From positions 1-64,000 of the forward strand of contig NZ_QZWH01000005.1 of the NCBI RefSeq assembly GCF_003601925.1: a stretch of 64,000 bases of DNA, written 5' to 3'. Source of the DNA: Buttiauxella izardii (GTDB lineage Bacteria > Pseudomonadota > Gammaproteobacteria > Enterobacterales > Enterobacteriaceae). The first letter of the stretch is position 1; every line of letters starts with the position of its first letter. Shown in pieces: positions 18,667 through 35,157 of the stretch. A model generated the notes under the pieces. That model did not search any database. It had not been told where the DNA came from and saw only the letters and a program-made list of their open reading frames with translations. Made by a program: the position numbers and the translations under genes.

Positions 18667-18692
18667 TTAAAGCATAACTTACTGACAGTTAA

Positions 18693-20105
18693 TTACTTTT
18701 CCATCCACTCGGTGTGGAACACACCTTCTTTATCGGTACGCTTGTAGGTATGCGCACCAAAGTAGTCGCGCTGCGCCTGAATCAGGTTGGCAGGCAGAAC
18801 CGCTGAGCGATAGCTATCGTAGTAAGAGATGGCGGCCGAGAAGGTAGGTGTTGGAATACCATTCTGTACTGCGTAAGAAACAACGTCACGCAGTGCCTGT
18901 TGATATTCGTCAGCAATTTGCTTGAAGTAAGGAGCTAACAGCAGATTTGCAATCGCTGGGTTCTCTGCATACGCATCGGTGATTTTCTGAAGGAACTGAG
19001 CACGGATAATGCAACCTGCGCGGAAAATCTTAGCAATCTCACCGTAGTTGAGATCCCAGTTATTCTCTTCAGAAGCGGCACGCAGTTGTGAGAAGCCCTG
19101 TGCATAAGAGACAATTTTACCCAAATACAATGCACGACGTACTTTCTCAGAGAACTCTGCTTTATCACCAGCAAACGGTTTAGCCTGCGGGCCACTCAGC
19201 ACTTTAGAAGCCTCGACACGTTGCTCTTTGAGCGAGGAGATGTAACGCGCGAACACAGATTCAGTGATAAGCGACAATGGTTCACCGAGATCCAGCGAAC
19301 TTTGGCTAGTCCATTTTCCAGTACCTTTGTTCGCGGCTTCATCAAGAATCACATCAACCAGATAGTTACCTTCTTCATCTTTTTTAGTGAAGATGTCTTT
19401 GGTGATGTCAATCAGGTAGCTGCTTAGTTCGCCTTTGTTCCAGTCAGTAAAGGTTGTTGCCAACTCTTCATTAGACAGATTCAGACCATTTTTAAGCAGT
19501 GAATAGGCTTCGGCGATAAGCTGCATGTCGCCGTATTCAATGCCGTTATGAACCATTTTCACATAGTGACCAGCACCATCAGCACCGATATAAGCAACAC
19601 ATGGTTCGCCATCCTCTGCCACAGCAGCAATTTGCTTAAGAATTGGTGCAACCAGTTCGTAAGCTTCTTTTTGACCTCCAGGCATGATAGATGGGCCTTT
19701 CAGGGCGCCTTCTTCACCACCAGAAACACCGGTACCAATGAAGTTAAAACCTTCAGCAGACAGTTCACGGTTACGGCGGATAGTGTCGTGATAGAAGGTA
19801 TTGCCACCATCGATAAGAATGTCACCCTTATCAAGATAAGGCTTCAAAGAATCAATGGTTTTGTCCGTGGCTTCGCCTGCCTTAACCATTAATAAAATAC
19901 GACGAGGAGTTTCCAGAGATTCAACAAACTCTTTCACTGTGTAATAAGGAACCAGCTTCTTGCCCGGGTTCTCGGCGATCACTTCTTCCGTTTTGTCACC
20001 GGAACGGTTGAACACGGAAACAGTATAGCCACGGCTTTCAATGTTCAGCGCAAGGTTGCGCCCCATTACTGCCATACCTACGACGCCGATCTGTTGTTTG
20101 GACAT
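18693..20105 (-). CDS. gnd: 6-phosphogluconate dehydrogenase, decarboxylating
   Basis: Pentose-phosphate pathway enzyme: 6-phosphogluconate plus NADP gives ribulose 5-phosphate, CO2 and NADPH. 470 residues. Visible are the NADP loop [24 protein letters not shown], catalytic lysine and substrate ligands in [17 protein letters not shown], and the C-terminal RDYFGAHTY. The start has CAGGAG upstream. gnd is the usual 3' border of enteric O-antigen clusters and recombines with them; its presence just downstream of the WbpM-like gene fits that. It has its own terminator. Confidence 0.98.
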
Positions 20106-20280
20106 TACATACTCCTGTCAGGGTTGGTCACCACGGCAAACGCGCGGCTTGAAATGTAGCTTGGATGTTAACCCAATTTATCCTTCTGGGGAAAGATTCG
20201 TAGGAGGCAACAACAAGTCTCAGCAAGACCGAAGCACCTACGATGAAACAAGATAAATTGATGTAAAAATCCACTGTCTG

Positions 20281-22197
20281 TTAGCATTTAATTTTGAGCG
20301 CGTTTGAGTCTGTAGAATGTCGGGCCTGCCAAACTAAGTCGCAAATTCCATCTGTTGGCTGGAAACCAGTAGGAACTTTTAATAAGATCGCACGTATCTC
20401 GTCGTGCTCAAATTTATTACAAGCATCATCAAGCTGGTCAATATACTCACTCAAAACCTCCCAACTAAGCATTTCTTCATGCGCAGTCATAATTCGTGGA
20501 TGAGTTGTGCCATGTACTTGCTCACCGATTAAAAGCTCTTCGTATAGTTTCTCTCCAGGCCTTAATCCCGTAATTTTAATTTCAATATCACCATCAGGGT
20601 GAGTTTCATTTTTTATGGTTAACCCACTTAATTTAATCATTCTTGTAGCAAGATCATAAATTTTTACAGGGTCCCCCATATCAAGAACAAAAACATCACC
20701 ACCTTTAGCCATTGCACCTGCCTGAATGACTAACTGAGAGGCTTCTGGAATGGTCATAAAATAACGAATAATATCTTTATGTGTAAGTGTAATTGGCCCT
20801 CCATGTTCAATCTGTTTCTCAAATAAAGGAACTACAGAGCCAGATGAACCCAACACATTACCAAAGCGAACCATACTGAAACAAGTTTGGCCACTTTCTT
20901 GAGACAAAGCCTGAAGAACTAATTCTGACATGCGCTTTGTCGCCCCCATGGTATTAGTAGGACGAACAGCTTTATCCGTGGACACAAGGATGAAAGTATC
21001 AACCCCGGTAGCTATAGCGGCTTGTGCACAATAAAGAGTTCCAAATATATTATTTCTGACACCTTCAACGACGTTATACTCTACTAAAGGAACATGTTTA
21101 TATGCTGCAGCATGATAAACAGTTTCAACACCAAAAGTGCGCATTATTGTTTCTAGCCGGTTTATTTTTTGCACTGTCCCTAATAATGGAATTATTCTTA
21201 CACCATAATTTTCATTTCTTGCAATACCAGAAAGCTCTTTCTCAATTGAATATAACCCGAACTCAGAAACTTCAAATAGAATCAATACTGTTGGTGATTG
21301 CTTTAGTATTTGCCGACATAATTCGGAACCGATTGAACCACCGGCACCAGTCACCATAACAACTTTTTTATGAATATTTTTCGCCAATAATACAGAATCA
21401 GGTTTTACTGACTCTCGCCCTAATAAATCATCAATAGAAACTTTTTTCAAAGAAATGATTTGCGCATTCCCCTCAACCAAATCGACCATGCCGGGTATAG
21501 ATAGCACCTCACATGGCAAGTTTTCCAGCGATGAAATAACCTCTTTGCGCTTATCCATTGTGATGCTTGGCATAGCTAATAATATTTTATTAATATCATA
21601 ACGTTGAACCAATAAAGGTAAACTTGCTCGGTTATATACTGCAACACCATGTATGACTACTTTGTGCAAGGCTGAATTATCATCAACAAAAGCCACTGGG
21701 AAATATTTATCACCTTGTATGAGGGCTGTTAATAACTGACGGCCGGATGCTCCTGCACCATATATTATAACCGACTCCCTGTCACCCACTGCAGAACTCA
21801 ACAGTCTGCGTATAAATAAACGGAAGCCACAAACAAACAACATCAAAAATGAAAAGTAAATAACGGGCACAGTTCGAGGTAAAAATACATTAAAAAAGTA
21901 AGATAGTGATATTAATAATATTGTTGACCCAACGACACCGAAGAAGGCCACGCCAAATATCTTCGCTGTCACATATCGCAATACCGTACGATACAGTCCG
22001 ACATATAGAAATAATAGAATCGTAGATACTGCAATGACTAAAAAAAGTTGCCAGTGGGCAGAACTTGTATAAGGAGCCGTACTATCCATACGAACCCAAA
22101 ATGCTCCCCAAAATGCTAATAGTATTAAAGTCGAATCTATCGCCAGCATAATAATGCGTTTGGCACTACGAGGCAAACTCAATAATTGCGTTAACAT
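20281..22197 (-). CDS. WbpM/PglF-type nucleotide-sugar 4,6-dehydratase
   Basis: Two-part protein of about 638 residues. Four membrane helices in the first ~130 residues are followed by a Rossmann CoA-binding-like domain (IIYGAGASGRQL) and a C-terminal SDR domain (VMVTGAGGSIGSELCRQI, HAAAYKHVP, STDKAVRPTNTMGATKRMSE). A Met replaces the usual catalytic Tyr, as expected in long WbpM/PglF enzymes. Expected reaction: UDP-GlcNAc to UDP-2-acetamido-2,6-dideoxy-xylo-hexos-4-ulose, at the inner membrane. I chose the ATG at 22197 because homology starts there (MLTQLLSLPRSAKR). A GTG at 22248 behind GGGG would add 17 residues. It is the last gene of the O-antigen cluster; the likely partner is the aminotransferase upstream. 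Confidence 0.88.
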   Translation of the reverse strand: MLTQLLSLPRSAKRIIMLAIDSTLILLAFWGAFWVRMDSTAPYTSSAHWQLFLVIAVSTILLFLYVGLYRTVLRYVTAKIFGVAFFGVVGSTILLISLSYFFNVFLPRTVPVIYFSFLMLFVCGFRLFIRRLLSSAVGDRESVIIYGAGASGRQLLTALIQGDKYFPVAFVDDNSALHKVVIHGVAVYNRASLPLLVQRYDINKILLAMPSITMDKRKEVISSLENLPCEVLSIPGMVDLVEGNAQIISLKKVSIDDLLGRESVKPDSVLLAKNIHKKVVMVTGAGGSIGSELCRQILKQSPTVLILFEVSEFGLYSIEKELSGIARNENYGVRIIPLLGTVQKINRLETIMRTFGVETVYHAAAYKHVPLVEYNVVEGVRNNIFGTLYCAQAAIATGVDTFILVSTDKAVRPTNTMGATKRMSELVLQALSQESGQTCFSMVRFGNVLGSSGSVVPLFEKQIEHGGPITLTHKDIIRYFMTIPEASQLVIQAGAMAKGGDVFVLDMGDPVKIYDLATRMIKLSGLTIKNETHPDGDIEIKITGLRPGEKLYEELLIGEQVHGTTHPRIMTAHEEMLSWEVLSEYIDQLDDACNKFEHDEIRAILLKVPTGFQPTDGICDLVWQARHSTDSNALKIKC

Positions 22198-22294
22198 TTT
22201 GCACCAATTTGCACCAATTATTTCAAGATGAAGGGGTAAGTAATCCACTCACCCCAGAAGACTATTTTTTAAATACTATAATGATTCAGCATTA

Positions 22295-23473
22295 TTATAT
22301 ATTAGATGCTGAAATCAAAATCTCTCTTGCCACTGAACAAGTCTCAACAATTTCAGAATTTGTCAGAGTAGGATGAACCAGGAACATTATACTTGTATCC
22401 CCAAGTTCTACAGCGTTTAAAAGTGGTTTAGCAGGACGCCACGATGTATTGTCAAAGGCTTTCTCAAGATAAACTTCAGAACAACTACCTTGATAACAAG
22501 GTACCCCCCTGGCACTTATTTCATTAATAATACGTTCGCGGCTCCATCCTTCCTTAAGGAACTCAGCATTAATAAAAATATAGTGCTTATAAGCTGCATG
22601 TTCAATATAACTTGGGACCTTTACGGTTCTAACTATTTTTAGGTCACCAACAGCCTCATCAATGGCTTTTGCATTTCTCTGACGTAAAAGTGTCCATTCA
22701 GGCATTTTTTTAAGTTGAATCCGGCCTATAACAGCTTGCATCTCAAGCATTCGCCAGTTGGTACCAAATGTCTCATGCAACCATCTAAAACCTGGTTGAT
22801 GCTCTTGGTTGTATACTGCATCATAGCTTTTACCGTGATCTTTATAGCTCCACATCCGAGACCATAATGCTTCGTCATTAGTAGTGACCATCCCCCCTTC
22901 ACCACCAGTGGTCATAATTTTGTCCTGGCAAAATGACCATGCACCAATATGACCAATACTACCGACACTTTTACCTTTATATTTTGCACCATGTGCTTGG
23001 GCGCAATCTTCAATAACATAGAGATTATGCTGCGTTGCTAAATTCATTAATTCATCCATCTCTGCTGGCATACCAGCGAGATGTACAACGATTATTGCCT
23101 TTGTTTTAGGGCTCAATACTCTTTTTACAGAATCCGCTGTAATACATTGGCTATTTAAATCAACATCAGCAAAAACTGGACTACCACCAGCAGTAACAAC
23201 ACACGATACTGATGCTAAAAAAGTACGTGAAGTAACAATAACCTCATCACCAACACCAATATCTAATGCTTTTAAGGCCACATCTAATGCAAGAGTACCA
23301 TTGCTTACCGCAACAGCATATTTAGTGCCAACCCAATCAGCAAATTCTGCTTCAAACTTACGACATTCATCGCCAGTCCAGTAATTAACTTTATTTGAGA
23401 GCAGAACTTTCGAAACCGCATCAACTTCTTCTTGAGTAAAGGATGGCCACGGAGAAAACTTTGTATTTAACAT
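22295..23473 (-). CDS. DegT/DnrJ/EryC1/StrS family sugar aminotransferase
   Basis: PLP-dependent nucleotide-sugar aminotransferase, 392 residues. The PLP-lysine segment is SFCQDKIMTTGGEGG; other family landmarks are AVSNGTLALDVAL, EVIVTSRTFLASV, VVHLAGMPAEMDEL and IEDCAQAHGAKYKGK. It should aminate the C4 keto group of a 6-deoxy-4-ketosugar nucleotide. With the WbpM-like enzyme next door the product would be UDP-4-amino-4,6-dideoxy-HexNAc (QuiNAc4N or FucNAc4N type). The alternative substrate is dTDP-4-keto-6-deoxyglucose from rmlB. No acetyltransferase or formyltransferase gene that would finish such a sugar is present in the cluster. Confidence 0.87.
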   Translation of the reverse strand: MLNTKFSPWPSFTQEEVDAVSKVLLSNKVNYWTGDECRKFEAEFADWVGTKYAVAVSNGTLALDVALKALDIGVGDEVIVTSRTFLASVSCVVTAGGSPVFADVDLNSQCITADSVKRVLSPKTKAIIVVHLAGMPAEMDELMNLATQHNLYVIEDCAQAHGAKYKGKSVGSIGHIGAWSFCQDKIMTTGGEGGMVTTNDEALWSRMWSYKDHGKSYDAVYNQEHQPGFRWLHETFGTNWRMLEMQAVIGRIQLKKMPEWTLLRQRNAKAIDEAVGDLKIVRTVKVPSYIEHAAYKHYIFINAEFLKEGWSRERIINEISARGVPCYQGSCSEVYLEKAFDNTSWRPAKPLLNAVELGDTSIMFLVHPTLTNSEIVETCSVAREILISASNI

Positions 23474-23650
23474 AAAATAAACCCTTAAAATTATTTTTAA
23501 CTAAAGTCACTCGATGTTACGAAGAGGATATCCTACTAAAATCAAACACCATCGGATATTTTCATATTATATAAGGAGAGTACGGCAATTTTAATTTGCC
23601 CAGGCATACATACATTCATCGTCGAATATCACCCCAAAGTTAAATAAGTA

Positions 23651-24250
23651 TTAATCGGTGTTTTTATTGGAGTTACCTTTGAATATAGGCATTGTCGCTT
23701 CACCAGTGGAAGATATACCTTCTTTAATCATCACTTTTTTAACCGTGAGGAACAATATTTTCAAATCCAGCCAGAAATTATGATTATCAACATACCATAT
23801 ATCGTATATAAATTTTTCTTCCCAGCTTATTGCATTCCGCCCATTTATTTGTGCCCAACCCGTAATACCTGGTTTGACTTCATGGCGACGCATTTGCTCA
23901 TCATCATATAATTCGAGATAGCTCATCAACAAAGGTCGGGGGCCCACTAGACTCATGTCACCTTTTAATACATTCCAAAGTTCCGGCAGCTCGTCTATGC
24001 TCAACGCGCGCAGTTTCTTACCAAAAGGTGTGAGTCTTTCTTCATCAGTAGTAGAAATACTATCGGCATCTTTCATACTTCTGAATTTTATCATCATAAA
24101 AGGCTTCCCTGACTTTCCAGGTCGTTGCTGCTTAAAAAGAACTGGGGAACCCAGTTTTGTATGAACTAAAACTGCAACAATGGCCATTGGCAGTGCCAGA
24201 ATTAATAGCATAACTGCTGAAACGATTATATCGAACAAACGCTTTATCAT
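23651..24250 (-). CDS. PglC-like phosphoglycosyltransferase (initiating sugar-1-phosphate transferase)
   Basis: Small monotopic bacterial sugar transferase, 199 residues. One N-terminal re-entrant hydrophobic segment (about 10-30) is followed by QQRPGKSGKPF, IKFRSM, the catalytic Asp-Glu in SIDELPEL, SLVGPRPLL and KPGITGWAQING. It transfers a sugar phosphate from UDP-sugar to undecaprenyl phosphate and so starts the repeat unit. Size and sequence resemble PglC, which uses UDP-diacetyl-bacillosamine; that fits the adjacent dehydratase and aminotransferase. It overlaps the upstream glycosyltransferase by 4 bases. Confidence 0.88.
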   Translation of the reverse strand: MIKRLFDIIVSAVMLLILALPMAIVAVLVHTKLGSPVLFKQQRPGKSGKPFMMIKFRSMKDADSISTTDEERLTPFGKKLRALSIDELPELWNVLKGDMSLVGPRPLLMSYLELYDDEQMRRHEVKPGITGWAQINGRNAISWEEKFIYDIWYVDNHNFWLDLKILFLTVKKVMIKEGISSTGEATMPIFKGNSNKNTD

Positions 24251-25467
24251 TTTGAACCTGTGACCTCATTAAAAATTGTGATGAACCGTCTTACACCTTC
24301 ATTCAGGCTGAGCTTCGATTCATAAAAATTTTTACCATTGTTTCCTAGTCTTTCCAGCTCAATGCTTGTTAATTGGCATAAGTGCTCAATACCGTCAGCC
24401 ATTGAGACGGGATCATTAGAAAAACAAATGATGCCTGCTTCTGCTTGTTTAATAAGGTCAGTAGCATCTCCACCTACGGCCATAACAATCGGCTTCCCAC
24501 AGGCCATATATGCTTGAGTTCTAGAAGGTATAGTGATCTTAAATAATTCATCGTCGATTAAATGAACAAGTAATGCATCGGCTTGATTCAGTAAATCACC
24601 TACCTGGCTTACCGGTACTCGTGGGATAAAATAAATATTATCAAGTTCAAGATCTTCCGCTTTTTGTTCTGCTTCTATTTTAGCAATACCAGAACCAATA
24701 ATGACAATATTTGCTTTTATCTTTCGTTCAATCAGCAGTTTTGCTGTATCAACTATAGCAGGCAACCCCTGAGCCAGCCCCAGATTACCTGCAAAAACCA
24801 CATTGAACCCATTATTAGGCAATAAATGTTCACTTTTTTCAAAGTTACGAATTTTTTCTTCATCACACCAGTTATAAATAATCTCAATTTTGTCGTCAGG
24901 CACACCGCGCTCTATTAAAGTTTTCTTAAACCCCGGAGAGAGTACGATAATTTTAGAAGCCCTTTTATAGATAAAATGACATACAATATCTACAACTTTT
25001 AGTATTTTAGTATTATTCAGCATACCGGTAGCCGCTAAGGTATCGGGCCAAAGATCCTGAACATCAATAACAAAAGGAGTTCTTCTGATAAGTGAAATTA
25101 ATGATGCAGATAAAGCTGTTGTCAGCGGAGGGTGGTAAGCATAAATAACATCGACTTTTTTCCTACGAAAAATACCGTATAGTGAACTACTAAAGAAAAA
25201 TGAAAGGTAGTTAAATATTCTTTTTATCGCTGATTTCCCATGGTCCGGATAAATTGGCACGCGATTAATATCTACATTATCTATTATTTCTTTTTGGTAT
25301 GCTTTAATAGCATATCCATCATAAACCTTTCCTCCGGGATAGTTCGGAAATCCAGTAATGACGTCAACATCAATGCCTTGTCTTTTTAATTCTTTAGCAA
25401 AGGCAAGCCCTTTAAACGTAGGTTCAGGATCGAACCACTGTGTCAATAATAAAACCTTCAACGTCAT
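24247..25467 (-). CDS. GT4 family glycosyltransferase, WbuB-like (probable L-FucNAc transferase)
   Basis: GT-B fold transferase, 406 residues. It opens LLLTQWFDPEPTFKGLAFAKEL, then VITGFPNYPGGKVYDGY, VIDVQDLWPDTLAATGML, GNLGLAQGLPAIV and the C-terminal nucleotide-binding stretch IPSRTQAYMACGKPIV. This pattern is that of WbuB/WbjE proteins, which are encoded next to fnlABC in clusters that add L-FucNAc. By position it is the best candidate for FucNAc transfer. It acts at the cytoplasmic face of the inner membrane and is coupled to the PglC-like gene by an ATGA overlap. Confidence 0.85.
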   Translation of the reverse strand: MTLKVLLLTQWFDPEPTFKGLAFAKELKRQGIDVDVITGFPNYPGGKVYDGYAIKAYQKEIIDNVDINRVPIYPDHGKSAIKRIFNYLSFFFSSSLYGIFRRKKVDVIYAYHPPLTTALSASLISLIRRTPFVIDVQDLWPDTLAATGMLNNTKILKVVDIVCHFIYKRASKIIVLSPGFKKTLIERGVPDDKIEIIYNWCDEEKIRNFEKSEHLLPNNGFNVVFAGNLGLAQGLPAIVDTAKLLIERKIKANIVIIGSGIAKIEAEQKAEDLELDNIYFIPRVPVSQVGDLLNQADALLVHLIDDELFKITIPSRTQAYMACGKPIVMAVGGDATDLIKQAEAGIICFSNDPVSMADGIEHLCQLTSIELERLGNNGKNFYESKLSLNEGVRRFITIFNEVTGSK

Positions 25468-25514
25468 TCCACCTGATCGTCAAAATAGCCCTAAATAATT
25501 TAGGGCATGAATGC

Positions 25515-26645
25515 TTAATAATTACGCCACACGACTCTTTTAACATAGTCAGTGTATGAAAGAATAATTCGGATAACTTTATCAGAAACATTCGGCATTG
25601 AATAATCGTTTACCTGAAGGAGCAGTCGTTCATCGTTACGTGGTTGATGTTCTAATATTGCAAGTGCCTGCAAAATTCTCTCGGGCTCAACCCCTGTCAT
25701 CATTACGGCCGCCTCTTCCATACCTTCCGGACGCTCGTGAGCCTCACGAATATTTACAGCAGGAAAGTTTAGAATAGACGACTCTTCATTAATTGTGCCA
25801 CTATCAGAGAGTACGGCATGTGCGTCTTTCTGCAATTTTACGTAGTCTTTGAAACCCAATGGCTTGAGAAGCTGAATTAAAGGATGGAAAACGATACCTT
25901 TAGCATCAATGCGTTTTTGCGTACGCGGGTGCGTAGAAATAATAACCGGCTGTTGGTATGTTTCCGCAACCAGGTTTAATGCATCCACTAATTTGAGCAA
26001 GTTTTTATCAGAGTCGATATTTTCTTCACGGTGAGCACTGACAACAAAATATTTTCCTTTTTCAAGGTTCAATCTAGTTATCACATCCGACCCTTCAATT
26101 CCTGCTGCATAGTGATTTAAAACCTCAAACATCGGGCTACCGGTTTTGATAATTCGGTCAGCCGGGAGTCCTTCTGCTAGAAGGTATTCACGTGCAATAT
26201 CACTGTAAGTTAAATTGATATCAGCAGTGTGATCCACTATGCGGCGATTGGTTTCTTCCGGAACCCGCATATCAAAGCAACGATTACCGGCTTCCATATG
26301 AAAAATGGGGATTTTACGACGTTTAGCAGGGATTGCAGACAGGCAACTGTTGGTATCACCTAACACCAGAATAGCATCAGGTTTAACTGTTTCTAAAACT
26401 TCATCTACTTTAATAATGATCTGACCAATTGTCTCGGCGGCATTTTTACCGGCAGCATTCAGAAAATAATCAGGTTTGCGTACAGATAAATCATCAAAGA
26501 AAATCTGATTCAGTTCGTAGTCATAATTCTGACCAGTATGAACAAGAGTGTGTTCACAGTATTCGTCTAATTTTGCAAGTACTCGTGATAAACGGATAAT
26601 TTCCGGTCGAGTACCGACAATACTCATAACATGTAATTTTTTCAT
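25515..26645 (-). CDS. fnlC: UDP-N-acetyl sugar 2-epimerase FnlC
   Basis: WecB-family C2 epimerase, 376 residues. IVGTRPEIIRLSRVL at the N-terminus, HTGQNYD, VLGDTNSCLSAIPAKRRKIPIFHMEAGNRCFD, SAHREENID and DSGTINEES are visible. The HMEAGNR variant marks the FnlC/WbjD/CapG group, which makes the last step to UDP-L-FucNAc, rather than WecB itself. It follows fnlB after 9 bases, in the canonical fnlABC order. Confidence 0.92.
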   Translation of the reverse strand: MKKLHVMSIVGTRPEIIRLSRVLAKLDEYCEHTLVHTGQNYDYELNQIFFDDLSVRKPDYFLNAAGKNAAETIGQIIIKVDEVLETVKPDAILVLGDTNSCLSAIPAKRRKIPIFHMEAGNRCFDMRVPEETNRRIVDHTADINLTYSDIAREYLLAEGLPADRIIKTGSPMFEVLNHYAAGIEGSDVITRLNLEKGKYFVVSAHREENIDSDKNLLKLVDALNLVAETYQQPVIISTHPRTQKRIDAKGIVFHPLIQLLKPLGFKDYVKLQKDAHAVLSDSGTINEESSILNFPAVNIREAHERPEGMEEAAVMMTGVEPERILQALAILEHQPRNDERLLLQVNDYSMPNVSDKVIRIILSYTDYVKRVVWRNY

Positions 26646-26654
26646 TTTTAACTC

Positions 26655-27770
26655 TTAAGAAATTTTATATGTCACGGTATCGGGCTGTGATGGGTCGAAT
26701 ATTTCGTTCGCCCACAACATTACAATCATTTCATCATTCCCGATGTTTGTAATGTCATGAGACCAGCCAGGAACAGTTTCAACAACTTTAGATTCTTCTG
26801 CATCCACAAAAAGCTCATAATACTCATTGGTAACAATATGGCGGAAGCAGAATTTTGCTTTTCCTTTAATAACAAGGAATTTCTCATTTTTTGTATGATG
26901 ATAGTGGCCACCTCGAGTTATCCCAGGATGTGCCGTGAAGAATGAGAATTGGCCGGAATCTTGCGTTTTCAGCATCTCAACGAAACTGCCACGCGGATCA
27001 CTGTGGCGTTTAACCGAGTAAGAGAACTGAGCCGGTTCATAGTAGCTAATAAACGTTGAATATAAAGCACGCGTTAGCCCTACACCAACCTTATCAATGA
27101 GTAATTGATTCTGATTTGCCTTGAAAGATTGAATAATTGAAACAACTTCACCCACAGTAGTCTTGTAAATAGGTTCAACAACAGCATTCTCAGGTTGTAT
27201 TTCGCCAACTAAGCTTTTCAAAAAATATTTACAGACGTCATCAATATAGACAAGATTTAAAGCTGCTTGCGGATCGTTAACTTTGACCTCAAGGCCATTT
27301 AAGATGTTAAAGCAAAAGGTTGCGACTGCAGAATTATAGTTAGGACGGCACCATTTTCCGAATACATTTGGTAGTCGGTAAATATAAACTTTTGCCCCCG
27401 TCAACGTAGCATAATCTCTAACTGCTTTTTCGGCAGCAGCTTTGCTTTTCCCATAATGGTTATCAGTTGCAGCCTGAATTGACGAAGTAATCAACAGCGG
27501 AGTCTTACTACCTTTCTCGGTGAGTTTTGCAACAATATATTCTGTAAGATTTGTATTTCCCTCATAGAATTCAACATCATTTTGCGGACGGTTCACTCCA
27601 GCTAAATGATAAACAAAGTCAGCTTCGAAGAGAGCATTATCTAAATCATCTTGTGAATTTTCACGGTCTAAACAAATGACACTTGCATGGCCATTTTCTC
27701 GCAAATGAATTTGTAAATTTTTCCCAATGAAGCCATTTGCGCCAGTGACAACAATCTTCATATTACTCAT
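26655..27770 (-). CDS. fnlB: UDP-2-acetamido-2,6-dideoxy-hexulose reductase FnlB
   Basis: 371-residue CapF/WbjC-type two-domain protein. An N-terminal SDR reductase (GANGFIGKNLQIHL, HLAGVNRP, GKSKAAAEKAV) is followed by a C-terminal cupin (RGGHYHHTKNEKFLVIKGKAKF). It performs the epimerase/reductase step between FnlA and FnlC in UDP-L-FucNAc synthesis. Its ATG overlaps the fnlA stop by 8 bases (ATGAGTAA), which implies translational coupling. Confidence 0.92.
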   Translation of the reverse strand: MSNMKIVVTGANGFIGKNLQIHLRENGHASVICLDRENSQDDLDNALFEADFVYHLAGVNRPQNDVEFYEGNTNLTEYIVAKLTEKGSKTPLLITSSIQAATDNHYGKSKAAAEKAVRDYATLTGAKVYIYRLPNVFGKWCRPNYNSAVATFCFNILNGLEVKVNDPQAALNLVYIDDVCKYFLKSLVGEIQPENAVVEPIYKTTVGEVVSIIQSFKANQNQLLIDKVGVGLTRALYSTFISYYEPAQFSYSVKRHSDPRGSFVEMLKTQDSGQFSFFTAHPGITRGGHYHHTKNEKFLVIKGKAKFCFRHIVTNEYYELFVDAEESKVVETVPGWSHDITNIGNDEMIVMLWANEIFDPSQPDTVTYKIS

Positions 27771-28797
27771 CCAGTTGATAGTTTTTATTCTCGCGAATAA
27801 AACGAATGAACGTAAGCTTTAATAAAAGTTTTTTCATACCTTCTACATCTAATCGTTCTGTATTATGAGAGTTATAATCAACAACCTCAGCAATACGTTG
27901 ATCACCCTCTTCTACATATTTTCCGTAGTTCAGATCACGTAAGTCTGGTGGTATACGGAAGTAGTCACCCATATCTTCAGCAGCAATCATTTCTTCACGG
28001 CTCAAAAGTGCTTCGTACAACTTTTCACCATGACGTGTACCGATAATATTGATTGGATGTTCTGGTACTTCAAGCAATTCTCTAAGCGCAATAGCTAAGG
28101 CTTCAATCGTTGCTGCAGGGGCTTTTTGAACAAAGATATCCCCATTATTGCCATGTTCGAAGGCATATAATACTAAATCAACAGCATCTTCGAGCGTCAT
28201 CATAAAGCGTGTCATGTTCGGATCGGTGATGGTTAGTGCTTTATCTTCTTTAATCAGGTCCACAAACAGTGGTATAACAGAACCACGGGAAGCCATCACA
28301 TTACCATAACGGGTGCCGCAAATTACCGTTTTGTTTTTATCAACATTACGGGACTTGGCCACCAGGACTTTTTCCATCATTGCTTTCGAAATACCCATCG
28401 CGTTGATTGGGTATACAGCTTTGTCGGTACTCAAGCAGACTACGCGTTTTACTTCATTAGTAATAGCTGCTTCCAGAACATTTTCCGTACCCAGAACGTT
28501 AGTTTTTACTGCTTCCATCGGGTGGAATTCACAAGAAGGAACCTGTTTCAGTGCTGCTGCATGGTAAATATAATCAACACCCCGAGATGCATTTAGAATA
28601 GCTTGATAATCTCTCACATCTCCAATATAAAATTTTAGCTTAGAGTTATTATAGCGCTTGCGCATATCATCTTGTTTTTTCTCATCTCGACTAAAAATTC
28701 TAATTTCAGTAATATCAGTATCAAGGAAACGCTTCAAAACTGCATTACCAAAAGAACCGGTACCACCGGTGATAAGTAACGTTTTATCTTTAAACAT
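27763..28797 (-). CDS. fnlA: UDP-GlcNAc 4,6-dehydratase/5-epimerase FnlA
   Basis: CapE/WbjB-type SDR, 344 residues; first step from UDP-GlcNAc towards UDP-L-FucNAc. TGGTGSFGNAVLKRFL (NAD loop), RDEKKQDDMR, YHAAALKQVPSCEFHPMEA, STDKAVYPINAMGISKAMMEK and RYGNVMASRGSVIPLF are visible. Met occupies the usual Tyr position, as in CapE, so this is not a defect. First gene of the fnlABC set; wzy lies 29 bases upstream. Confidence 0.94.
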   Translation of the reverse strand: MFKDKTLLITGGTGSFGNAVLKRFLDTDITEIRIFSRDEKKQDDMRKRYNNSKLKFYIGDVRDYQAILNASRGVDYIYHAAALKQVPSCEFHPMEAVKTNVLGTENVLEAAITNEVKRVVCLSTDKAVYPINAMGISKAMMEKVLVAKSRNVDKNKTVICGTRYGNVMASRGSVIPLFVDLIKEDKALTITDPNMTRFMMTLEDAVDLVLYAFEHGNNGDIFVQKAPAATIEALAIALRELLEVPEHPINIIGTRHGEKLYEALLSREEMIAAEDMGDYFRIPPDLRDLNYGKYVEEGDQRIAEVVDYNSHNTERLDVEGMKKLLLKLTFIRFIRENKNYQLDE

Positions 28798-28826
28798 AAT
28801 TGTCTCACCAAAAAATTATTTATTAA

Positions 28827-30005
28827 CTATAATACAACGCATGTAGCACTCTGATTCAGTTTGCCATCTGAGCGTAAATTTTTATTGAGCATCATAAATA
28901 GATATGAAGTAAACATGTATCCATTTGGACCAAAGGCAAGGCCTTTAATATTAAATAGCACTCCAACCAAAAACCATACTAATGCTAATTTACTTTTTCC
29001 AAATGCAGCTAGTGATAGAAATGCCAGAAATAACATAAATAGTATAATATATACCACGCCGCCATAATTGAATAATATCACCCACCCCATATCTGAGAAC
29101 ACAGCTAAATTTGGAATTGCTGAAGATATATTTTGCTGGAAACCAAAAAGTATTGAATATACATCCAGAGAATGTAAACTAATCACATGCTGTGCTATAA
29201 GTCCACTAATTGTTCGCATACCGCCGCTATTAACGAACTCAGCATAGAACCTTGGGAAAAGTACCGCTCCTAAGGCATAGATTACAGTTCCTGTAATCAA
29301 AACTGCAAAAATCTTGAACGTCAACTTAATATTTGAAAACGTTAGCGCAAATAATATTGCCACAACAGCCATATTAGAATTAATTATTTGTGTTAAACAT
29401 ACTAAGATCAGCAATAAATATTTTTTTTGTATAACAAAAAACGACATAAAAACCATAAGAAAAGGTGTCATGAAATTAATTTCACCTGATAACCCAAAGC
29501 CTCTTACTGATTCATTCTGTGCCCACAGATTTACTGAGTCCCCCATGCCAAATATATTATACAAAAATATTTTTGCATTAATATTAAAATACATAATAAA
29601 AAATATTAATATCTGCAGCCAAAATGATAATATCATTATACTTTCTAACTTTGATTTTTCTTTATTTAGTAATTTGGATAGCGCTAGAGCTGGCAAAAAC
29701 GACAGAACGAAGATCATAATAATTCTAAATGAAAATGAACTTTGCACTGATAGATTATCTTGGTAGCAATCAAATAGAATACTAACTATTAGAATAACAG
29801 CCAGTACTCCCCATGACATTGTACTTGCATCTAATTTAATCTTAAATTGTTTGAGATTAACTAAACTACTTAGCAAAATATAAAAACCATATAATGCTGG
29901 AATCAATGCTAAGTATACATATGGACTGAGTAATGACAGTCTAAAAAAAACCACAAAGAAAATTAAAAAACTTACTACTTTGTTTATAAGGGTTAGTTTA
30001 ATCAT
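28827..30005 (-). CDS. wzy: Putative O-antigen polymerase Wzy
   Basis: 392-residue integral membrane protein with about ten to eleven hydrophobic segments and one larger hydrophilic loop in the second half (around residues 230-300, with NSGGMRTISG and QQNISSAIPNLA). Wzy proteins share topology rather than sequence, and I see no diagnostic motif. The call rests on topology, on being the only such protein in the cluster besides Wzx, and on position. It would join repeat units on the periplasmic side. Very AT-rich. Confidence 0.78.
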   Translation of the reverse strand: MIKLTLINKVVSFLIFFVVFFRLSLLSPYVYLALIPALYGFYILLSSLVNLKQFKIKLDASTMSWGVLAVILIVSILFDCYQDNLSVQSSFSFRIIMIFVLSFLPALALSKLLNKEKSKLESIMILSFWLQILIFFIMYFNINAKIFLYNIFGMGDSVNLWAQNESVRGFGLSGEINFMTPFLMVFMSFFVIQKKYLLLILVCLTQIINSNMAVVAILFALTFSNIKLTFKIFAVLITGTVIYALGAVLFPRFYAEFVNSGGMRTISGLIAQHVISLHSLDVYSILFGFQQNISSAIPNLAVFSDMGWVILFNYGGVVYIILFMLFLAFLSLAAFGKSKLALVWFLVGVLFNIKGLAFGPNGYMFTSYLFMMLNKNLRSDGKLNQSATCVVL

Positions 30006-30037
30006 ATTATTACTTAAATGTAGATTGCGTTAAATAT

Positions 30038-31024
30038 CTATAAATACCAATTCTTTAACAATTGTTTTCTATCAATAGTTTCACGTTCCTGACATCCTTT
30101 CAAATATGAGCATAATAATATATATCGATAAAGAAGAGGTATGTAGAATATTTTATTCCTGTCATTTTTTATAAGAAGCTTAGCAATCCTAAGAGCAAGA
30201 TATTCAGATAATACCTTCTTTATGATTTTACTAAAAATGGATTTGCTCTTAATAAAAATATTTTCAATGGCATTTATTTTTTTATTACTGGCAAACAGTT
30301 CTGGGCATTCTATCGATAAAGCTAACATACCATCACGAGCCGTAGATCTAATTTTATTGGAGTACTTTATAATATCACCACCATGTTCGTGATGAAGTAT
30401 CATTTGTTTTGACATTATAATATTGACACCACTATTCATCAACTGCCATGGAAACTCATGGTCTTCACAGCCATATCCGAGGAAATTTTCGTTATATAAA
30501 ATTTGTGTCCGTTCTAAAATGTCTCTTGAGATCAAGCAATTCATCGATACAAAAGTCCATTCATTTAAGATAAGCATTTCATCATCTGAATATTTTGGAT
30601 GCCTAGAATCTCTGTACCTGTAGTAATTACTATTATTAACTAACTCTTTTACAAATCTAACTTCACCACAATATACAGTATTTTCTTTGTAATTATTAAC
30701 TATGTGCACAACATCATTTAAAAAGTCCTCTCCAGGGATACAATCATCATCAAGAAATATAAGATATTGCCCTGATGATTTTTTTATCCCTAGATTTCTT
30801 TTTGCAGCAACAATATTTTCGGTGTGTAAATGCCTAATAGTTAATGAATTCAATTCATTAATTGCATCATCAATAATTTTTTCTATTTCAATACCACTAT
30901 GGCTATCACACAATATTACTTCTAATTTAATATCATTAAGTGCTGCCTGTTTATTTAACTCGTTTAATATAAGTGACAATTCTATCACTCTTTTCCATAC
31001 TGGTATGACAACTGACAGTAACAT
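30038..31024 (-). CDS. GT2 family glycosyltransferase
   Basis: Inverting GT-A transferase of about 328 residues. It opens SVVIPVWKR; LHTENIVAAKRNLGI and the metal-binding LDDDCIPGEDF lie at about 80-110, and GCEDHEFPWQLM further on. The C-terminal third is basic and lacks family landmarks. Donor and acceptor are unknown; it should add one sugar of the O-unit. I chose the ATG at 31024, two bases past the wzx stop. A GTG at 31039 overlapping wzx is the alternative. Confidence 0.85.
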   Translation of the reverse strand: MLLSVVIPVWKRVIELSLILNELNKQAALNDIKLEVILCDSHSGIEIEKIIDDAINELNSLTIRHLHTENIVAAKRNLGIKKSSGQYLIFLDDDCIPGEDFLNDVVHIVNNYKENTVYCGEVRFVKELVNNSNYYRYRDSRHPKYSDDEMLILNEWTFVSMNCLISRDILERTQILYNENFLGYGCEDHEFPWQLMNSGVNIIMSKQMILHHEHGGDIIKYSNKIRSTARDGMLALSIECPELFASNKKINAIENIFIKSKSIFSKIIKKVLSEYLALRIAKLLIKNDRNKIFYIPLLYRYILLCSYLKGCQERETIDRKQLLKNWYL

Positions 31025-31025
31025 G

Positions 31026-32273
31026 TTATTTTTTCTCACTTCGTGTATTTCTTAAAGATATAAGATATAAAGACATTCCAAGTGCCACTATAATTTCCGC
31101 GGCAAAAAGACTCCATATTGCGCCAATTACGTCAAAATACTTACTTAAGGGATAGATTAGTAAGAGGCATCCAATCCCACCAGAACAAATAATTCTGAAA
31201 TAAATATTATTTTTCCCTTGAGGGACAAGTATCAATAACCCTACAATAGAATTAAATACGATTAACACAGGCAATAATGTCATTAATCTTAAAGCATCTT
31301 TAATCTCAGCACCTTTATTACCAAAAATTATTTCTGCAAATACATCTGGATATAACACAATTGGAATTGATATTACTACAAAAAAAGACACCAGCCATTT
31401 TAACAGACTAATTGATTGTTGCCTTGCTCTTCTAGGATCGCTCTGATTAAGAATGTTAATCTTTGGATAAAACGCCTGTATAATCGGCGCTATCAGCCCT
31501 GCCAAAGCCTGCTTTACCATATTAGCTGAGTTGAATATTCCAACAGCAGTATTACCGGCAACAATACCTAGAATAATTGGGGTCAGCATTGTATATGTAC
31601 TTGTAGCCAGAGTTGAAAAAAAGAAATACGCCCCATCTTTTAAAACCCCAATGACATCTTTTCTAGTTGGTATATAGACACATACTAATTTATCGGCGAC
31701 TAACCACCCCATAGCAGATATAGAATATATCACATATGGTAAAATAAGAATAAACGCAATCTCAATAATATCATTTCTATTTAAAATAAAAACATAACCA
31801 TATATAAATGAAATGGCTATTCCGCGAGATACTAAAGAATTAATTGCCATTAACTTCATCATTTCTAATCCCTGGAGTAACCAGTTAGGATTGAATATGT
31901 TAAAAAAGACAGCAATTAATGATATATATAATAAATTTCTAATATCATATAATGACGGTATTAACAGAAAACACATTACTATCAACATAACTGGAATAAA
32001 TAGCCATAATCTTGCAACGATTATTTTAGCCAAACTTTTAGAAATGTATTCTTTGTCACCCCGATTAATCGCGACTAACCTTGTAGCACTATACCCAAAA
32101 CCATATTCCACAATCAGGAATAGCATCTGCATGATAACAATCGATAAACTTACCTTCCCAAATGACTCAACACCTAAAATGCGAATTAATAATGGATAAA
32201 TCATTAAAGGAAGCAAATAATTTACACCTTGGCTTATTGCAAGGTAAATAATGTTTTTTTTCGTACTATTCAA
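31026..32273 (-). CDS. wzx: O-antigen flippase Wzx
   Basis: 415-residue polysaccharide transporter of the MATE-like/MOP superfamily with about twelve membrane helices. The N-terminus NIIYLAISQGVNYLLPLMIYPLLIRILGVESFG is typical of Wzx. It moves undecaprenyl-diphosphate-linked O-units to the periplasmic face. First gene of the cluster, starting about 100 bases after the JUMPstart element on the same strand. AT-rich. Confidence 0.88.
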   Translation of the reverse strand: MNSTKKNIIYLAISQGVNYLLPLMIYPLLIRILGVESFGKVSLSIVIMQMLFLIVEYGFGYSATRLVAINRGDKEYISKSLAKIIVARLWLFIPVMLIVMCFLLIPSLYDIRNLLYISLIAVFFNIFNPNWLLQGLEMMKLMAINSLVSRGIAISFIYGYVFILNRNDIIEIAFILILPYVIYSISAMGWLVADKLVCVYIPTRKDVIGVLKDGAYFFFSTLATSTYTMLTPIILGIVAGNTAVGIFNSANMVKQALAGLIAPIIQAFYPKINILNQSDPRRARQQSISLLKWLVSFFVVISIPIVLYPDVFAEIIFGNKGAEIKDALRLMTLLPVLIVFNSIVGLLILVPQGKNNIYFRIICSGGIGCLLLIYPLSKYFDVIGAIWSLFAAEIIVALGMSLYLISLRNTRSEKK

Positions 32274-32371
32274 AGATCATCACCATAAGAAAATAAATAG
32301 TTTGCTTTTTTGTTTACTTTATATTGCTTTGCCTAAAAATTTTGCTTTTTTAATTTGTTACTTACTTCGAG

Positions 32372-32410
32372 CACGCTACCGCCCCTGGCTCAACAGCTAC
32401 CAGTCTACTG
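32372..32410 (-). promoter_or_regulatory. JUMPstart element with ops site, O-antigen cluster
   Basis: On the minus strand a 39-bp JUMPstart starts with CAGTAGACTGGTAGC and ends GGGGCGGTAGCGTG. The ops core GGCGGTAGCGTG is at 32372-32383. ops pauses RNA polymerase and recruits RfaH, an antiterminator needed for long surface-polysaccharide operons. It lies about 100 bases upstream of wzx. The promoter should lie on the galF side, but I cannot fix its boxes confidently. Confidence 0.93.
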
Positions 32411-32659
32411 TATATTTATCCCTCTCGGCATTTACCGTACTAGGGCACCAAAAATTTCATCCTGAGTAAGACAATTCAGCAGTATGATTTTTGTATTCAA
32501 GTATCAAAAAAACACTATCACACTGAATTTTATACACTATATTTCTAATATATAAAGCAAGACGGTGGCCCGCGACTCAGAATCAAGAACCATTCAGAGC
32601 ACTACGCCACCGTTTGACCCTTCACCATACTTAGGGCATAACAGCTCATATTCTACAAG
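32411..32659. other. galF-JUMPstart spacer with long-range inverted repeat
   Basis: AT-rich non-coding stretch expected to hold the O-antigen promoter. An 8-bp inverted repeat, ACGGTGGC (32562-32569) and GCCACCGT (32606-32613), encloses 36 bases with partial inner complementarity (CTCAGAAT / ATTCAGAG). It lies in the galF 3' region and could end or stabilise that transcript; there is no strong T-run. Confidence 0.35.
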
Positions 32660-33553
32660 TTAGCCCAGCAACTTCTGAATACTATCCCTGAACTTCTGCC
32701 CTTCTTTATGGTTACGCAGCCCATACTGCACAAATGCCTGCATGTAACCCATTTTCTTGCCGCAGTCGTAACTTTCACCTGTCATCAATGCCGCTTCAAC
32801 TGCCTGCTTTTTGTTTAGCGCAGCAATAGCATCAGTCAACTGAATACGGCCCCAGGCACCCGGCTCGGTTTTTTCTAATTCAGGCCAGATATCAGCAGAC
32901 AACACATAACGCCCCACCGCAGCTACGTCAGAATCCAGTATCTGTGGTTGATCTGGTTTTTCCACGAAATCAACAATGCGACCAATCTGTCCATCGTTTT
33001 GCAATGGTTCTTCCGTGGTGATAACCGAATAGTCAGAAAGGTCTTCGTTTGGCATGCGTTTAGCCAAAACCTGGCTGCGCCCGGTCTCTCTGAAACGCTC
33101 AACAATGGCGGCTAAATTATAGCGCAATGGGTCGGCGCTGGCGCCATCAAGGATAACGTCAGGTAATACCACCACAAACGGATTATCGCCAACAACTGGA
33201 CGAGCGCACAAAATGGAGTGACCCAAGCCTAACGGCTGAGCCTGACGCACGTTCATAATCGTCACGCCTGGAGGGCAGATAGACTGGACTTCAGCAAGCA
33301 ACTGGCGCTTTACGCGCTGCTCAAGAAGAGCTTCCAGCTCATAAGATGTGTCGAAGTGGTTCTCTACCGCATTCTTCGATGAATGCGTCACCAGCACGAT
33401 TTCTTTGATACCCGCTGCAACAATTTCGTCAACGATGTATTGGATCATCGGCTTATCGACGATGGGCAGCATCTCTTTAGGGATAGCTTTCGTTGCTGGC
33501 AACATGTGCATACCCAAACCGGCAACCGGGATCACTGCTTTCAAATTAATCAT
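32660..33553 (-). CDS. galF: GalF, UTP-glucose-1-phosphate uridylyltransferase-like protein
   Basis: 297-residue GalU paralogue that marks the 5' border of enteric O-antigen clusters; it has weak or modulatory activity in UDP-glucose synthesis. [21 protein letters not shown] shows the GalF-specific M-H in place of the T-R of Gal[15 protein letters not shown] and [12 protein letters not shown] follow. The ATG at 33553 has GAGGTGGG at good spacing; a GTG at 33565 lies within that ribosome site. It lies between the colanic acid operon (wcaM) and the O-antigen promoter. Confidence 0.95.
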
Positions 33554-33732
33554 ATTTAGACCCACCTCGAAATGGTTGGAGGATTATAAACTTTTCGTGC
33601 TGTGATGCCAGCATGAATTGATCCCCTGAATTAGTACTGCATCTTAACGTTCTTAACAAATCACGCAAATCCAACTCTTTGTATTACTCCATTATAAAGG
33701 TCGGAAAATTCGCAAAGTGATTTGACAAACTA

Positions 33733-35157
33733 TTACTTCGCGACTGGCAACGTGAAATTCAACCTCTCACTATTCACATACCGCTGGTCAACGCGGTCGA
33801 TGTCCACCGAACTGTGTCCTTTCTCGTTCACCGCCCGCACATTGGCGAGCGACAGCAACGTCTCATCTTTGGCCATAAAGCGGCCGCGCACGTCTTTGCG
33901 CAGGTCAAAATTAAGCTTCAATGCAGGTCCGGCGTCAGCGTACTGCATCACATCGATGTTTCTCAGAAACAAGTGTTGCGGTTTGTTATGCAGCTCAAGG
34001 GTTGCGCGCTTCATCACAACATTAGTGATAGCCACAAACGAGGTCGCATTGCCCGACGATATCTGTATTCCGCGGCTTTTGAACTGCATATTCGTATTAT
34101 CAAGCACGATGTTATTTAGTTTAAAATTTTGTGGAATAGATAAATATTTACCTTTGATCACACCATAACCAATTAAAAATCCGGCACTCTCTTTCATCTC
34201 GATATTATCAAGTACGAAATTATCACAGCCATAAATAGCTACGGTGGCGTTATCAATTCCCGCCTTCTTACTGAAGGTATGGTTTATATTGCGGGCCTTT
34301 ATATTACGAATAATGAAGTGTTTTCCGTTTTCAACGTGCACCAACTGGCGGCAGTTGCTGCCGGTGATATTCGCCACCACGAAGTTTTTTACCGCCTGGT
34401 CTTCCGGGTAGTCGTTGTCGTAGGTACTGCCCGCCAGGCCAATCCCGATGCCCCAGTTTATCTTGCCGTTGGTGCAATCAATGTTTTCAATGACGTGGTC
34501 GGAGATAAGCAGGTTGTGGTCGTTTATCGCCACATTCCACTCGATAGCATCGCCCTGCAAATGGCTAAAGTGCCCGTTAGTGATCTTCACGTTTTCCATG
34601 CGGTTATGGAACCCTTGCCGCAAAATGGCGTAGTTCGCATCGTGCACCGTGATGTGGTCTATCACCAGGTTGCGCATGGTGCGCTTCTCTTTACCACCAA
34701 TATAAATCTGCGTGACCGGCACAAAGCCGCTCATATCAATCCCTTTAATAGTGCAGTCCGACCCCCGCACATCAAGGGTGATATTGTTAAATCGTCCGCC
34801 CTTCTCGCCTAAAATCTGGCAGCCGTCCTGCATCACAAAGCGCCCTTTGCCGTTGCCTTTTAAGCCACCCGCAACGTGCAGAATTTTACCTTCGGGCATA
34901 AAGATGGCGGTGTTGATGTTGTCGCAAACTAAATCGGCGGGAACGGTCACGGTATCAGCGGCGGCGAAAGCCTGTTTGAAAGCGGCAATCCAGTCACCGC
35001 GATAGAATTTTTGAACGCTGGCCTCGCTTTTGCCAGCAGCGGCAAATACACCGCGAGGAGAAATGAATGGCACCGCAGCCAGCACAGAGCTGGCTTTTAA
35101 CAGTTTGCGGCGGGAGGAAGAAAAAGTGGCGGGAGTTGATTGAAATTTATTCGGCAT
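33733..35157 (-). CDS. wcaM: Colanic acid biosynthesis protein WcaM
   Basis: Last gene of the colanic acid operon; 474 residues. A twin-arginine-type signal ([18 protein letters not shown], ending near FAAA) is followed by repeated beta-strand rungs ([47 protein letters not shown]) that suggest a right-handed beta-helix. The molecular role is not established. It matches E. coli WcaM closely in the central part ([21 protein letters not shown]). The ATG has GAGGA upstream; wcaL ends 29 bases before it. Confidence 0.93.

What the first reader, a model, noticed from the sequence alone, without database searches (positions are those of the whole stretch)
20281..32410. O-antigen cluster predicted to build a unit with L-FucNAc and a 4-amino-4,6-dideoxy-HexNAc
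The cluster has JUMPstart, wzx, GT2, wzy, fnlABC, WbuB-like GT4, PglC-like PGT, DegT aminotransferase and WbpM-like dehydratase. fnlABC gives UDP-L-FucNAc. Dehydratase plus aminotransferase gives a UDP-QuiNAc4N/FucNAc4N-type sugar that the PglC-like enzyme would load first. Two glycosyltransferases then predict a short repeat unit of about three sugars. It merges the E. coli O26-like fnl-wbuB module with a Pgl-like initiation module, and I do not recognise the combination as a described enteric serotype.
Basis: partly seen in the sequence, partly recalled or inferred. Interest (0 to 1): 0.7.

Follow-up and report, generated by a model that had tools for sequence, protein, structure and literature searches.

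The report
O15-like O-antigen with bacillosamine-type start
This is a complete set of genes for building the sugar coat of a gut-type bacterium: one end resembles Escherichia coli serotype O15 and the other end starts each sugar unit with a rare amino-sugar, but the gene that normally caps that amino-sugar is missing from the cluster.

Summary
In detail: an intact ten-gene Wzx/Wzy O-antigen cluster lies between galF and gnd behind a full JUMPstart/ops element. The GT4 is not E. coli WbuB. It belongs to a known proteobacterial module, fnlABC-GT4-PGT-[N-acyltransferase]-aminotransferase-dehydratase. The aminotransferase matches a solved UDP-QuiNAc4N-forming enzyme, so the first sugar is most likely QuiNAc4N-type (bacillosamine series) rather than FucNAc4N, though FucNAc4N references were not tested. 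New here: of 70 loci with a similar PGT, 61 carry an acetyltransferase with it and 8 carry other ORFs there. The window has only a 177-bp gap. The same genome holds one unlinked WeeI-type acetyltransferase (sbmC-yeeA, absent from 11 congeners) that could supply the step. Its UDP-binding Asp-Asp is Leu-Glu, and close orphan relatives, including E. coli prophage copies, occur without this aminotransferase. Whether the 4-amino group is acetylated in trans or stays free is open. L-FucNAc with QuiN4N-type sugars is already in print: a new variant, not a new kind.

The parts
32372..32410 (-). JUMPstart with ops element (CAGTAGACTGGTAGCTGTTGAGCCAGGGGCGGTAGCGTG)
   Evidence: core found; full stretch read; consensus recalled
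31026..32273 (-). wzx, O-unit flippase
   Evidence: PF01943 E 1e-37; 46% identical to E. coli O15 Wzx
30038..31039 (-). GT2 glycosyltransferase, predicted to add the third sugar
   Evidence: PF00535; 49% identical to the GT2 of E. coli O15
28827..30005 (-). wzy, O-antigen polymerase
   Evidence: no Pfam or NCBIfam hit; 48% identical to E. coli O15 Wzy; the wzy-GT2 stretch has a DNA match in 97 of 5426 E. coli genomes, all 20 rows shown being O15
27763..28797 (-). fnlA, UDP-GlcNAc 4,6-dehydratase/5-epimerase
   Evidence: TIGR04130 727.2 bits, cut-off 730; 88% to O15 FnlA
26655..27770 (-). fnlB, reductase
   Evidence: NF047837 557 bits, cut-off 500
25515..26645 (-). fnlC, UDP-sugar 2-epimerase
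   Evidence: TIGR00236 238.6 bits, cut-off 210; 79% to O15 FnlC
24247..25467 (-). GT4 glycosyltransferase, predicted L-FucNAc transferase acting on the QuiNAc4N-type first sugar; not E. coli WbuB
   Evidence: PF00534/PF13579; at least 45% identical to GT4s in 11 of 85 loci, 9 of which carry fnlA; no E. coli DNA match
23651..24250 (-). PglC-type small monotopic phosphoglycosyl transferase, initiates the O-unit
   Evidence: PF02397; best solved relative 8g1n, an N,N'-diacetylbacillosaminyl-1-phosphate transferase, E 1e-60, with the DE dyad and NGRNAISWE stretch kept (role of the dyad recalled)
23474..23650 (-). 177-bp non-coding gap at the place where relatives carry an N-acyltransferase gene
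   Evidence: (no remnant found)
22295..23473 (-). DegT aminotransferase, predicted UDP-QuiNAc4N synthase
   Evidence: 7L7X (Pcryo_0638) E 5e-173; D156, Q159, Q183, K185, K215 conserved
20281..22248 (-). WbpM/PglF-like UDP-GlcNAc 4,6-dehydratase
   Evidence: PF02719; WlaL 5bju (C. jejuni PglF, name recalled) E 1e-86 with STDKAVRPTN.MG.TKR kept

Best explanation
A working Wzx/Wzy O-antigen cluster in which an E. coli O15-type distal half (wzx, GT2, wzy) is combined with a widespread reducing-end module. The dehydratase and aminotransferase make UDP-QuiNAc4N. The PglC-type PGT puts the QuiNAc4N-type sugar on undecaprenyl phosphate in place of WecA's GlcNAc. The non-WbuB GT4 adds L-FucNAc made by FnlABC. 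GT2 adds the third sugar, most likely galactose as in O15 (recalled), and Wzx and Wzy flip and polymerise the unit. Predicted unit: Gal?-L-FucNAc-QuiNAc4N(R). The N-acyltransferase that normally sits between PGT and aminotransferase is not there. The likeliest single route for this step is acetylation in trans by the genome's unlinked WeeI-type acetyltransferase (C32:1172-1831); a free 4-amine is the main alternative. Shown by comparison: gene content, family identity, module order, the missing gene, and the orphan gene's uniqueness in the genus sample. Inferred: all enzyme activities, sugar identities and linkages, and the trans step.
For: O15 collinearity and identities. The AT is closest to the characterised UDP-QuiNAc4N-forming Pcryo_0638 and the PGT to a diNAcBac PglC. 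The GT4 class goes with fnlA (9 of 11 against 8 of 74 other loci, Fisher P 3e-6). Of 70 loci with a PGT at least 50% identical, 59 have a NeuD/WeeI-type acetyltransferase between PGT and AT, 2 have it fused to the PGT, 8 have a 1.2-2.8 kb gap with other ORFs, and 1 (L082) has neither. WeeI-type enzymes go with fnlA-bearing loci (9 of 14 against 5 of 52 among loci with an acetyltransferase, P 7e-5). The orphan WeeI-type gene is in 1 of 12 genus genomes, the one that has the AT. The 11 others have sbmC and yeeA matches only 34-187 bp apart. In 392 family genomes the AT (6) and this enzyme (3) co-occur in 2, one of them linked (hypergeometric P 6e-4). The three other order-level WeeI-type hits all lie in PGT/AT loci.
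Against: The orphan enzyme has Leu-Glu where both solved relatives and all 17 comparison sequences from loci with this AT have Asp-Asp, residues that hold uracil and ribose in Pcryo_0637. Ser11 is Gly, but so it is in 2 of those 17. It groups (98/93) with orphan copies in G236 and in E. coli prophages that have Val-Glu; G236 has no close AT (best E 3e-35) and the AT-PGT stretch has no DNA match in the E. coli collection. So the orphan clade may act on something else. O15 is only 46-49% identical in Wzx, GT2 and Wzy, so third sugar and linkages could differ. The tests are post hoc and treat related loci as independent. The O15 repeat structure was not found in the library and is recalled.
Confidence: 0.5

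Rival explanations
1. Same cluster, but the first sugar keeps a free 4-amino group: PGT, GT4, Wzx and Wzy accept QuiNAc4N itself. With neutral Gal and FucNAc the polymer would be cationic.
For: No N-acyltransferase or remnant between PGT and AT; the only strong NeuD/WeeI-type gene found elsewhere in the genome has an altered UDP site. L082 is a second locus with a PGT of this class (63%) and no acylation gene beside it. FucNAc4N without a 4-N-acyl group is known in P. shigelloides O17/S. sonnei (PMC3640391 passages).
Against: The PGT is 53-70% identical to PGTs of 70 loci, 61 with an acetyltransferase and 8 with other ORFs in its place. Five other gapless modules (L011, L013, L024, L041, L055) use divergent PGTs, 30-41%.
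Confidence: 0.25
2. First sugar is FucNAc4N (D-galacto), as in S. sonnei/P. shigelloides O17.
For: The proposed pathway there is also three enzymes, dehydratase, aminotransferase and PGT (PMC3989065 passages; PMC6467956 passages).
Against: The AT matches a D-gluco-forming enzyme over 381 residues at E 5e-173 and Neisseria loci at 71-76%; the PGT matches PglC. WbgX/WbgY themselves were not compared.
Confidence: 0.12
3. The cluster is decaying: loss of the N-acyltransferase blocks the pathway and the strain is rough or shows only another polysaccharide.
For: Missing step; the genome holds a second polysaccharide locus (L125).
Against: All ten reading frames are intact and the JUMPstart is in place.
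Confidence: 0.1

Closest known systems
E. coli O15 O-antigen cluster (L002, NZ_CP134389.1)
   Same: Gene order wzx-GT2-wzy-fnlA-fnlB-fnlC-GT4 between galF and gnd; Wzx 46%, GT2 49%, Wzy 48%, FnlA 88%, FnlB 58%, FnlC 79% identical
   Different: O15 has an unrelated GT4 and wbuC, then gnd; no PGT, aminotransferase or dehydratase; a transposase gene lies between galF and wzx in L002. ugd follows gnd there, rmlBA here
fnlABC-GT4-PGT-Ac-AT-DH clusters (L012 in the same family; L040 Colwellia, L087 Ralstonia, L092 Moraxellaceae)
   Same: Same gene order apart from an extra ORF in L040 and L092; GT4 48-62%, PGT 61-64%, AT 67-71% identical
   Different: Each carries an acetyltransferase between PGT and AT; the ORFs upstream of fnlA do not match the window's wzx, GT2 or wzy
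Bacillosamine (Pgl) pathway: Pcryo_0638/0637; C. jejuni PglF-PglE-PglD-PglC
   Same: Dehydratase, aminotransferase and PGT classes
   Different: No PglD in the cluster; serves an O-antigen
Plesiomonas shigelloides O1 and Acinetobacter lwoffii F78 polysaccharides
   Same: L-FucNAc together with an N-acylated QuiN4N sugar (for O1 the passage writes QuiNAcHb)
   Different: Other sugars and acyl groups; genes not compared by sequence
WeeI/Pcryo_0637-type N-acetyltransferases
   Same: Orphan gene is nearest 4m9c (E 5e-74; named WeeI from recall) and 7l7y (E 4e-66); catalytic His, Gln178 and its loop kept
   Different: Asp40-Asp41 is Leu-Glu and the gene is unlinked

Membership tests
Wzx/Wzy O-antigen cluster of Enterobacteriaceae | wzx, wzy, glycosyltransferases, JUMPstart, between galF and gnd | tested here: met
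UDP-L-FucNAc pathway (FnlABC) | FnlA, FnlB, FnlC present | tested here: met
   FnlB and FnlC pass cut-offs (FnlC on the general WecB model); FnlA 727.2 against 730; 88% to annotated O15 fnlA
E. coli serogroup O15 | near-identical wzx/wzy and same gene set | tested here: not met
   46-48% protein identity; 3' half different
E. coli WbuB | sequence relation to the GT4 before wbuC | tested here: not met
   no blastp hit at 1e-5 to the O15 GT4; no DNA match in 5426 E. coli genomes; O26 WbuB protein itself not compared
QuiNAc4N/bacillosamine pathway | UDP-GlcNAc 4,6-dehydratase of PglF/WbpM type | tested here: met
QuiNAc4N/bacillosamine pathway | C4 aminotransferase giving the D-gluco product | tested here: inconclusive
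   closest solved enzyme makes it; product not assayed
QuiNAc4N/bacillosamine pathway | 4-N-acetyltransferase in the cluster | tested here: not met
QuiNAc4N/bacillosamine pathway | PglC-type PGT | tested here: met
S. sonnei/P. shigelloides O17 FucNAc4N module | WbgX/WbgY/WbgZ orthology | not tested
   the S. sonnei genes lie on its virulence plasmid, which was not fetched; the P. shigelloides O17 genes were not looked for
WeeI/Pcryo_0637 acetyltransferase (orphan gene) | catalytic His142, Gln178, Pro213 | tested here: met
WeeI/Pcryo_0637 acetyltransferase (orphan gene) | UDP-binding Asp40-Asp41 and Ser11 | tested here: not met
   Leu-Glu and Gly; Gly11 also occurs in 2 of 17 comparison enzymes (L014, L079)

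The most novel reading that the evidence does not exclude
The state of the 4-amino group on the first O-antigen sugar is uncoupled from the cluster: without help the strain makes a free-amine, positively charged O-antigen, and a mobile orphan acyltransferase clade (here at sbmC-yeeA; in E. coli inside a prophage next to a MaoC-type hydratase) acylates amino-sugar precursors in trans, a precursor-level form of lysogenic conversion.
Probability: 0.25. Interest if true: 0.6.

Novelty: new variant of a known kind. Interest (0 to 1): 0.38.

Why it matters
It suggests how a serotype can change its first sugar by swapping the initiation genes and the second glycosyltransferase together, and it gives a precise predicted O-unit. 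It also points to an N-acyltransferase step that has left the cluster, and to a phage-borne relative in E. coli, which makes a testable case for precursor acylation from outside an O-antigen locus.

Tried and rejected
Identical known serotype:'s 408 E. coli records the 30 listed are all O15; 301 of the 408 match at 95-99% and were not looked at (probably short matches near JUMPstart, since without that stretch finds 97, all 60-80%). A megablast of 18000-36000 put O181, O182, O185 and O103 first, but covers at most 15% of the query, mostly gnd and fnl genes. Acetyltransferase remnant in the gap: tblastn gave only hits that I read as chance (best E 0.06 over 6 residues in the 281-bp stretch). 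S. sonnei-type FucNAc4N: disfavoured, not excluded. rmlBA next to gnd as part of the O-antigen: set aside, because the genome's ECA cluster has no room for rffG/rffH between wecC and wecD (L126; gene names by recalled E. coli order), so rmlBA probably serves ECA. The orphan acetyltransferase as certain partner: weakened by its Leu-Glu change and its prophage relatives. Other searches with it: 9 of 72,556 plasmid records at 43-52% identity, one partial viral contig match at 47% over 81 residues (not followed). O15 repeat structure ([2)bGal(1-3)aL-FucNAc(1-3)bGlcNAc(1-]): recalled; searches and the papers opened did not give it.

7 have no PGT within 6 kb (some at contig ends) and 8 have PGTs under 50%; both groups are left out of the count of 70.
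Full report
Observation. The window is G000:C5:1-64000 of a 4.77-Mb, 91-contig genome; 12 species genomes of its genus were searched. It is not named. JUMPstart with ops precedes wzx.

The distal half is O15-like. In E. coli, the wzy-GT2 stretch matches 97 of 5,426 genomes at about 67% DNA identity, and all 20 rows shown, taken evenly down the ranking, are annotated O15. The O15 locus L002 has the same order wzx-GT2-wzy-fnlA-fnlB-fnlC-GT4, with Wzx 46%, GT2 49%, Wzy 48%, FnlA 88%, FnlB 58% and FnlC 79% identical. O15 continues with wbuC and gnd and has no PGT, aminotransferase or dehydratase, so its unit presumably starts by WecA (inference). The window's wzy was found in 1 of 392 family genomes, its own (E up to 1e-10), and the wzx-wzy stretch in 1 of 12 of the genus.

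The reducing-end half is a separate, known module. The window's GT4 has no blastp relation to the O15 GT4, and neither its gene nor the PGT-AT stretch has a DNA match in E. coli. A scan of named genomes with an aminotransferase alignment gave 80 loci at 64-76% identity, from Vibrio, Shewanella, Neisseria, Ralstonia, Pseudomonas and others. In 17 of 85, fnlA lies in the fetched locus, 15 of them with fnlB and fnlC. A GT4 at least 45% identical to the window's occurs in 11 of 85, of which 9 have fnlA, against 8 of the other 74 (Fisher P 3e-6). The GT4 therefore goes with fnlABC and the PglC-type PGT, as expected for a transferase that puts L-FucNAc on a QuiNAc4N-type first sugar (inference). On this reading the swap of first sugar came with a swap of the second transferase.

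Which sugar. The aminotransferase's closest solved relative is 7L7X, Psychrobacter Pcryo_0638, over residues 1-381. By kinetics and crystal structure that enzyme makes UDP-2-acetamido-4-amino-2,4,6-trideoxy-D-glucose (PMC8040287: abstract, Results part 1, and the two sections on the acetyltransferase read). Its active-site Asp156, Gln159, Gln183, Lys185 and Lys215 are conserved in the window; Tyr229 is Phe. The PGT is closest to 8g1n, an N,N'-diacetylbacillosaminyl-1-phosphate transferase, and the dehydratase to WlaL 5bju, which I recall as C. jejuni PglF. FucNAc4N is less likely, but its reference enzymes were not compared.

The missing gene. In L012, from the same family, the order is fnlABC-GT4-PGT-acetyltransferase-AT-DH. 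Of the 85 loci, 70 have a PGT at least 50% identical within 6 kb upstream of the AT. Of these 70, 59 have a NeuD/WeeI-type acetyltransferase between PGT and AT, and 2 (Neisseria) have it fused to the PGT. 8 have a gap of 1.2-2.8 kb with other ORFs (in L031 only a 100-aa one; in L045 an ATP-grasp and a HAD-family protein). 1, L082 (a metagenome bin), has neither. The window has 177 bp without a recognisable remnant. Five further modules with no gap (L011, L013, L024, L041, L055) use divergent PGTs of 30-41% identity. So the window has the PGT type that normally goes with acylation but no acylation gene.

A candidate elsewhere. The genome has one strong match to the missing enzyme (E 2e-15; the next is 3e-5): a 219-aa gene at C32:1172-1831 between sbmC and yeeA, with PglD_N and Hexapep domains. 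By recalled E. coli gene order, and by eye in G236 (L128), C32 and C5 abut at their first bases. This puts the gene about 21 kb or more from the dehydratase, across the his operon (inference, contig break). Its nearest solved relatives are 4m9c and Pcryo_0637, and WeeI-type enzymes prefer fnlA-bearing loci (9 of 14 against 5 of 52). In 394 genomes of the order, 4 had it at E up to 1e-60: this one and three where it stands between PGT and AT. It is in 1 of 12 genus genomes, the only one with the aminotransferase, and in the other 11 the sbmC and yeeA matches are only 34-187 bp apart.

Against the candidate. Pcryo_0637 holds uracil and ribose with Asp40-Asp41 and Ser11. All 14 sequences from AT loci and the three more keep Asp-Asp, as do both solved enzymes; the orphan has Leu-Glu. 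Its Gly11 is shared with 2 of the 17. The catalytic His142 and Gln178 are kept. It forms a supported clade (98/93) with an orphan in G236 and one in E. coli prophages, which have Val-Glu; the sister (100/100) is L014, which keeps Asp-Asp and lies beside an AT. G236 has no close aminotransferase. The E. coli copies, in 6 of 5,426 genomes, lie just after the tail-fibre assembly gene and before a MaoC-type gene in the four read. That MaoC protein is 66-71% identical to ones in AT loci L132, L133 and L040, so the prophage pair probably came from such a cluster. The clade can thus exist without this pathway and may use another substrate. I rate acetylation in trans as the likeliest single route, with a free 4-amine next.

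Known context. L-FucNAc with an acylated QuiN4N is in print for A. lwoffii F78 (PMC3726653, passages). fnlABC with pglB/pglD is in print for P. shigelloides O1 (PMC6467956, passages). QuiNAc4NAc is the first sugar of 16% of A. baumannii K types (PMC10320297, abstract and passages), and E. cloacae O9-O12, O16 and O27 are thought to start with D-FucNAc (PMC7198725, passages). Searches (13 papers listed; 2; 15 of 39 listed) showed no title or abstract start that I recognised as this gene combination in an enteric species; most structural papers are not in the library. Verdict: a real O-antigen cluster, a new variant of a known kind, of moderate interest mainly for the displaced acylation step.

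Noticed in passing
L134:11814-12909, L135:7814-8909, L136:3814-4909, L137:3814-4909 (E. coli): A NeuD/PglB/VioB-family acetyltransferase plus MaoC-type dehydratase sits after the tail-fibre assembly gene of prophages in the four read of 6 E. coli genomes with a match (of 5426). The MaoC protein is 66-71% identical to ones in aminotransferase loci L132, L133 and L040. Looks like a lysogenic-conversion cassette derived from a QuiNAc4N-type cluster.
   Followed up: partly
window 16579-18537 and L126 (G000:C47): rmlBA lie between gnd and wzz where E. coli O15 has ugd, while the ECA cluster has no room for rffG/rffH between wecC and wecD (names by recalled order); rmlBA probably supply dTDP-glucose for ECA. 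ugd is elsewhere (C11:19990-21156).
   Followed up: partly
L125 (G000:C11:12000-28000): A second polysaccharide locus, by eye with flippase-like, polymerase-like and glycosyltransferase ORFs, ugd and wza-wzb-like genes, separate from colanic acid and the O-antigen.
   Followed up: no
L016, L026, L045, L047, L053, L063: In place of the acetyltransferase these clusters carry two ORFs of about 320-350 and 220-230 aa; in L045 they are an ATP-grasp and a HAD-family protein. Probably a different N-acyl group on the same sugar.
   Followed up: partly
L119:9160-9852 (G236): Orphan WeeI-type acetyltransferase beside a fliE-like gene (by eye) in a genome whose O-antigen cluster has a VioA-like aminotransferase with an acyltransferase next to it (L127:9513-11196).
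   Followed up: partly
L103:1-450: The C32 contig end next to sbmC looks by eye like an insertion-sequence end, which would explain the assembly break there.
   Followed up: no
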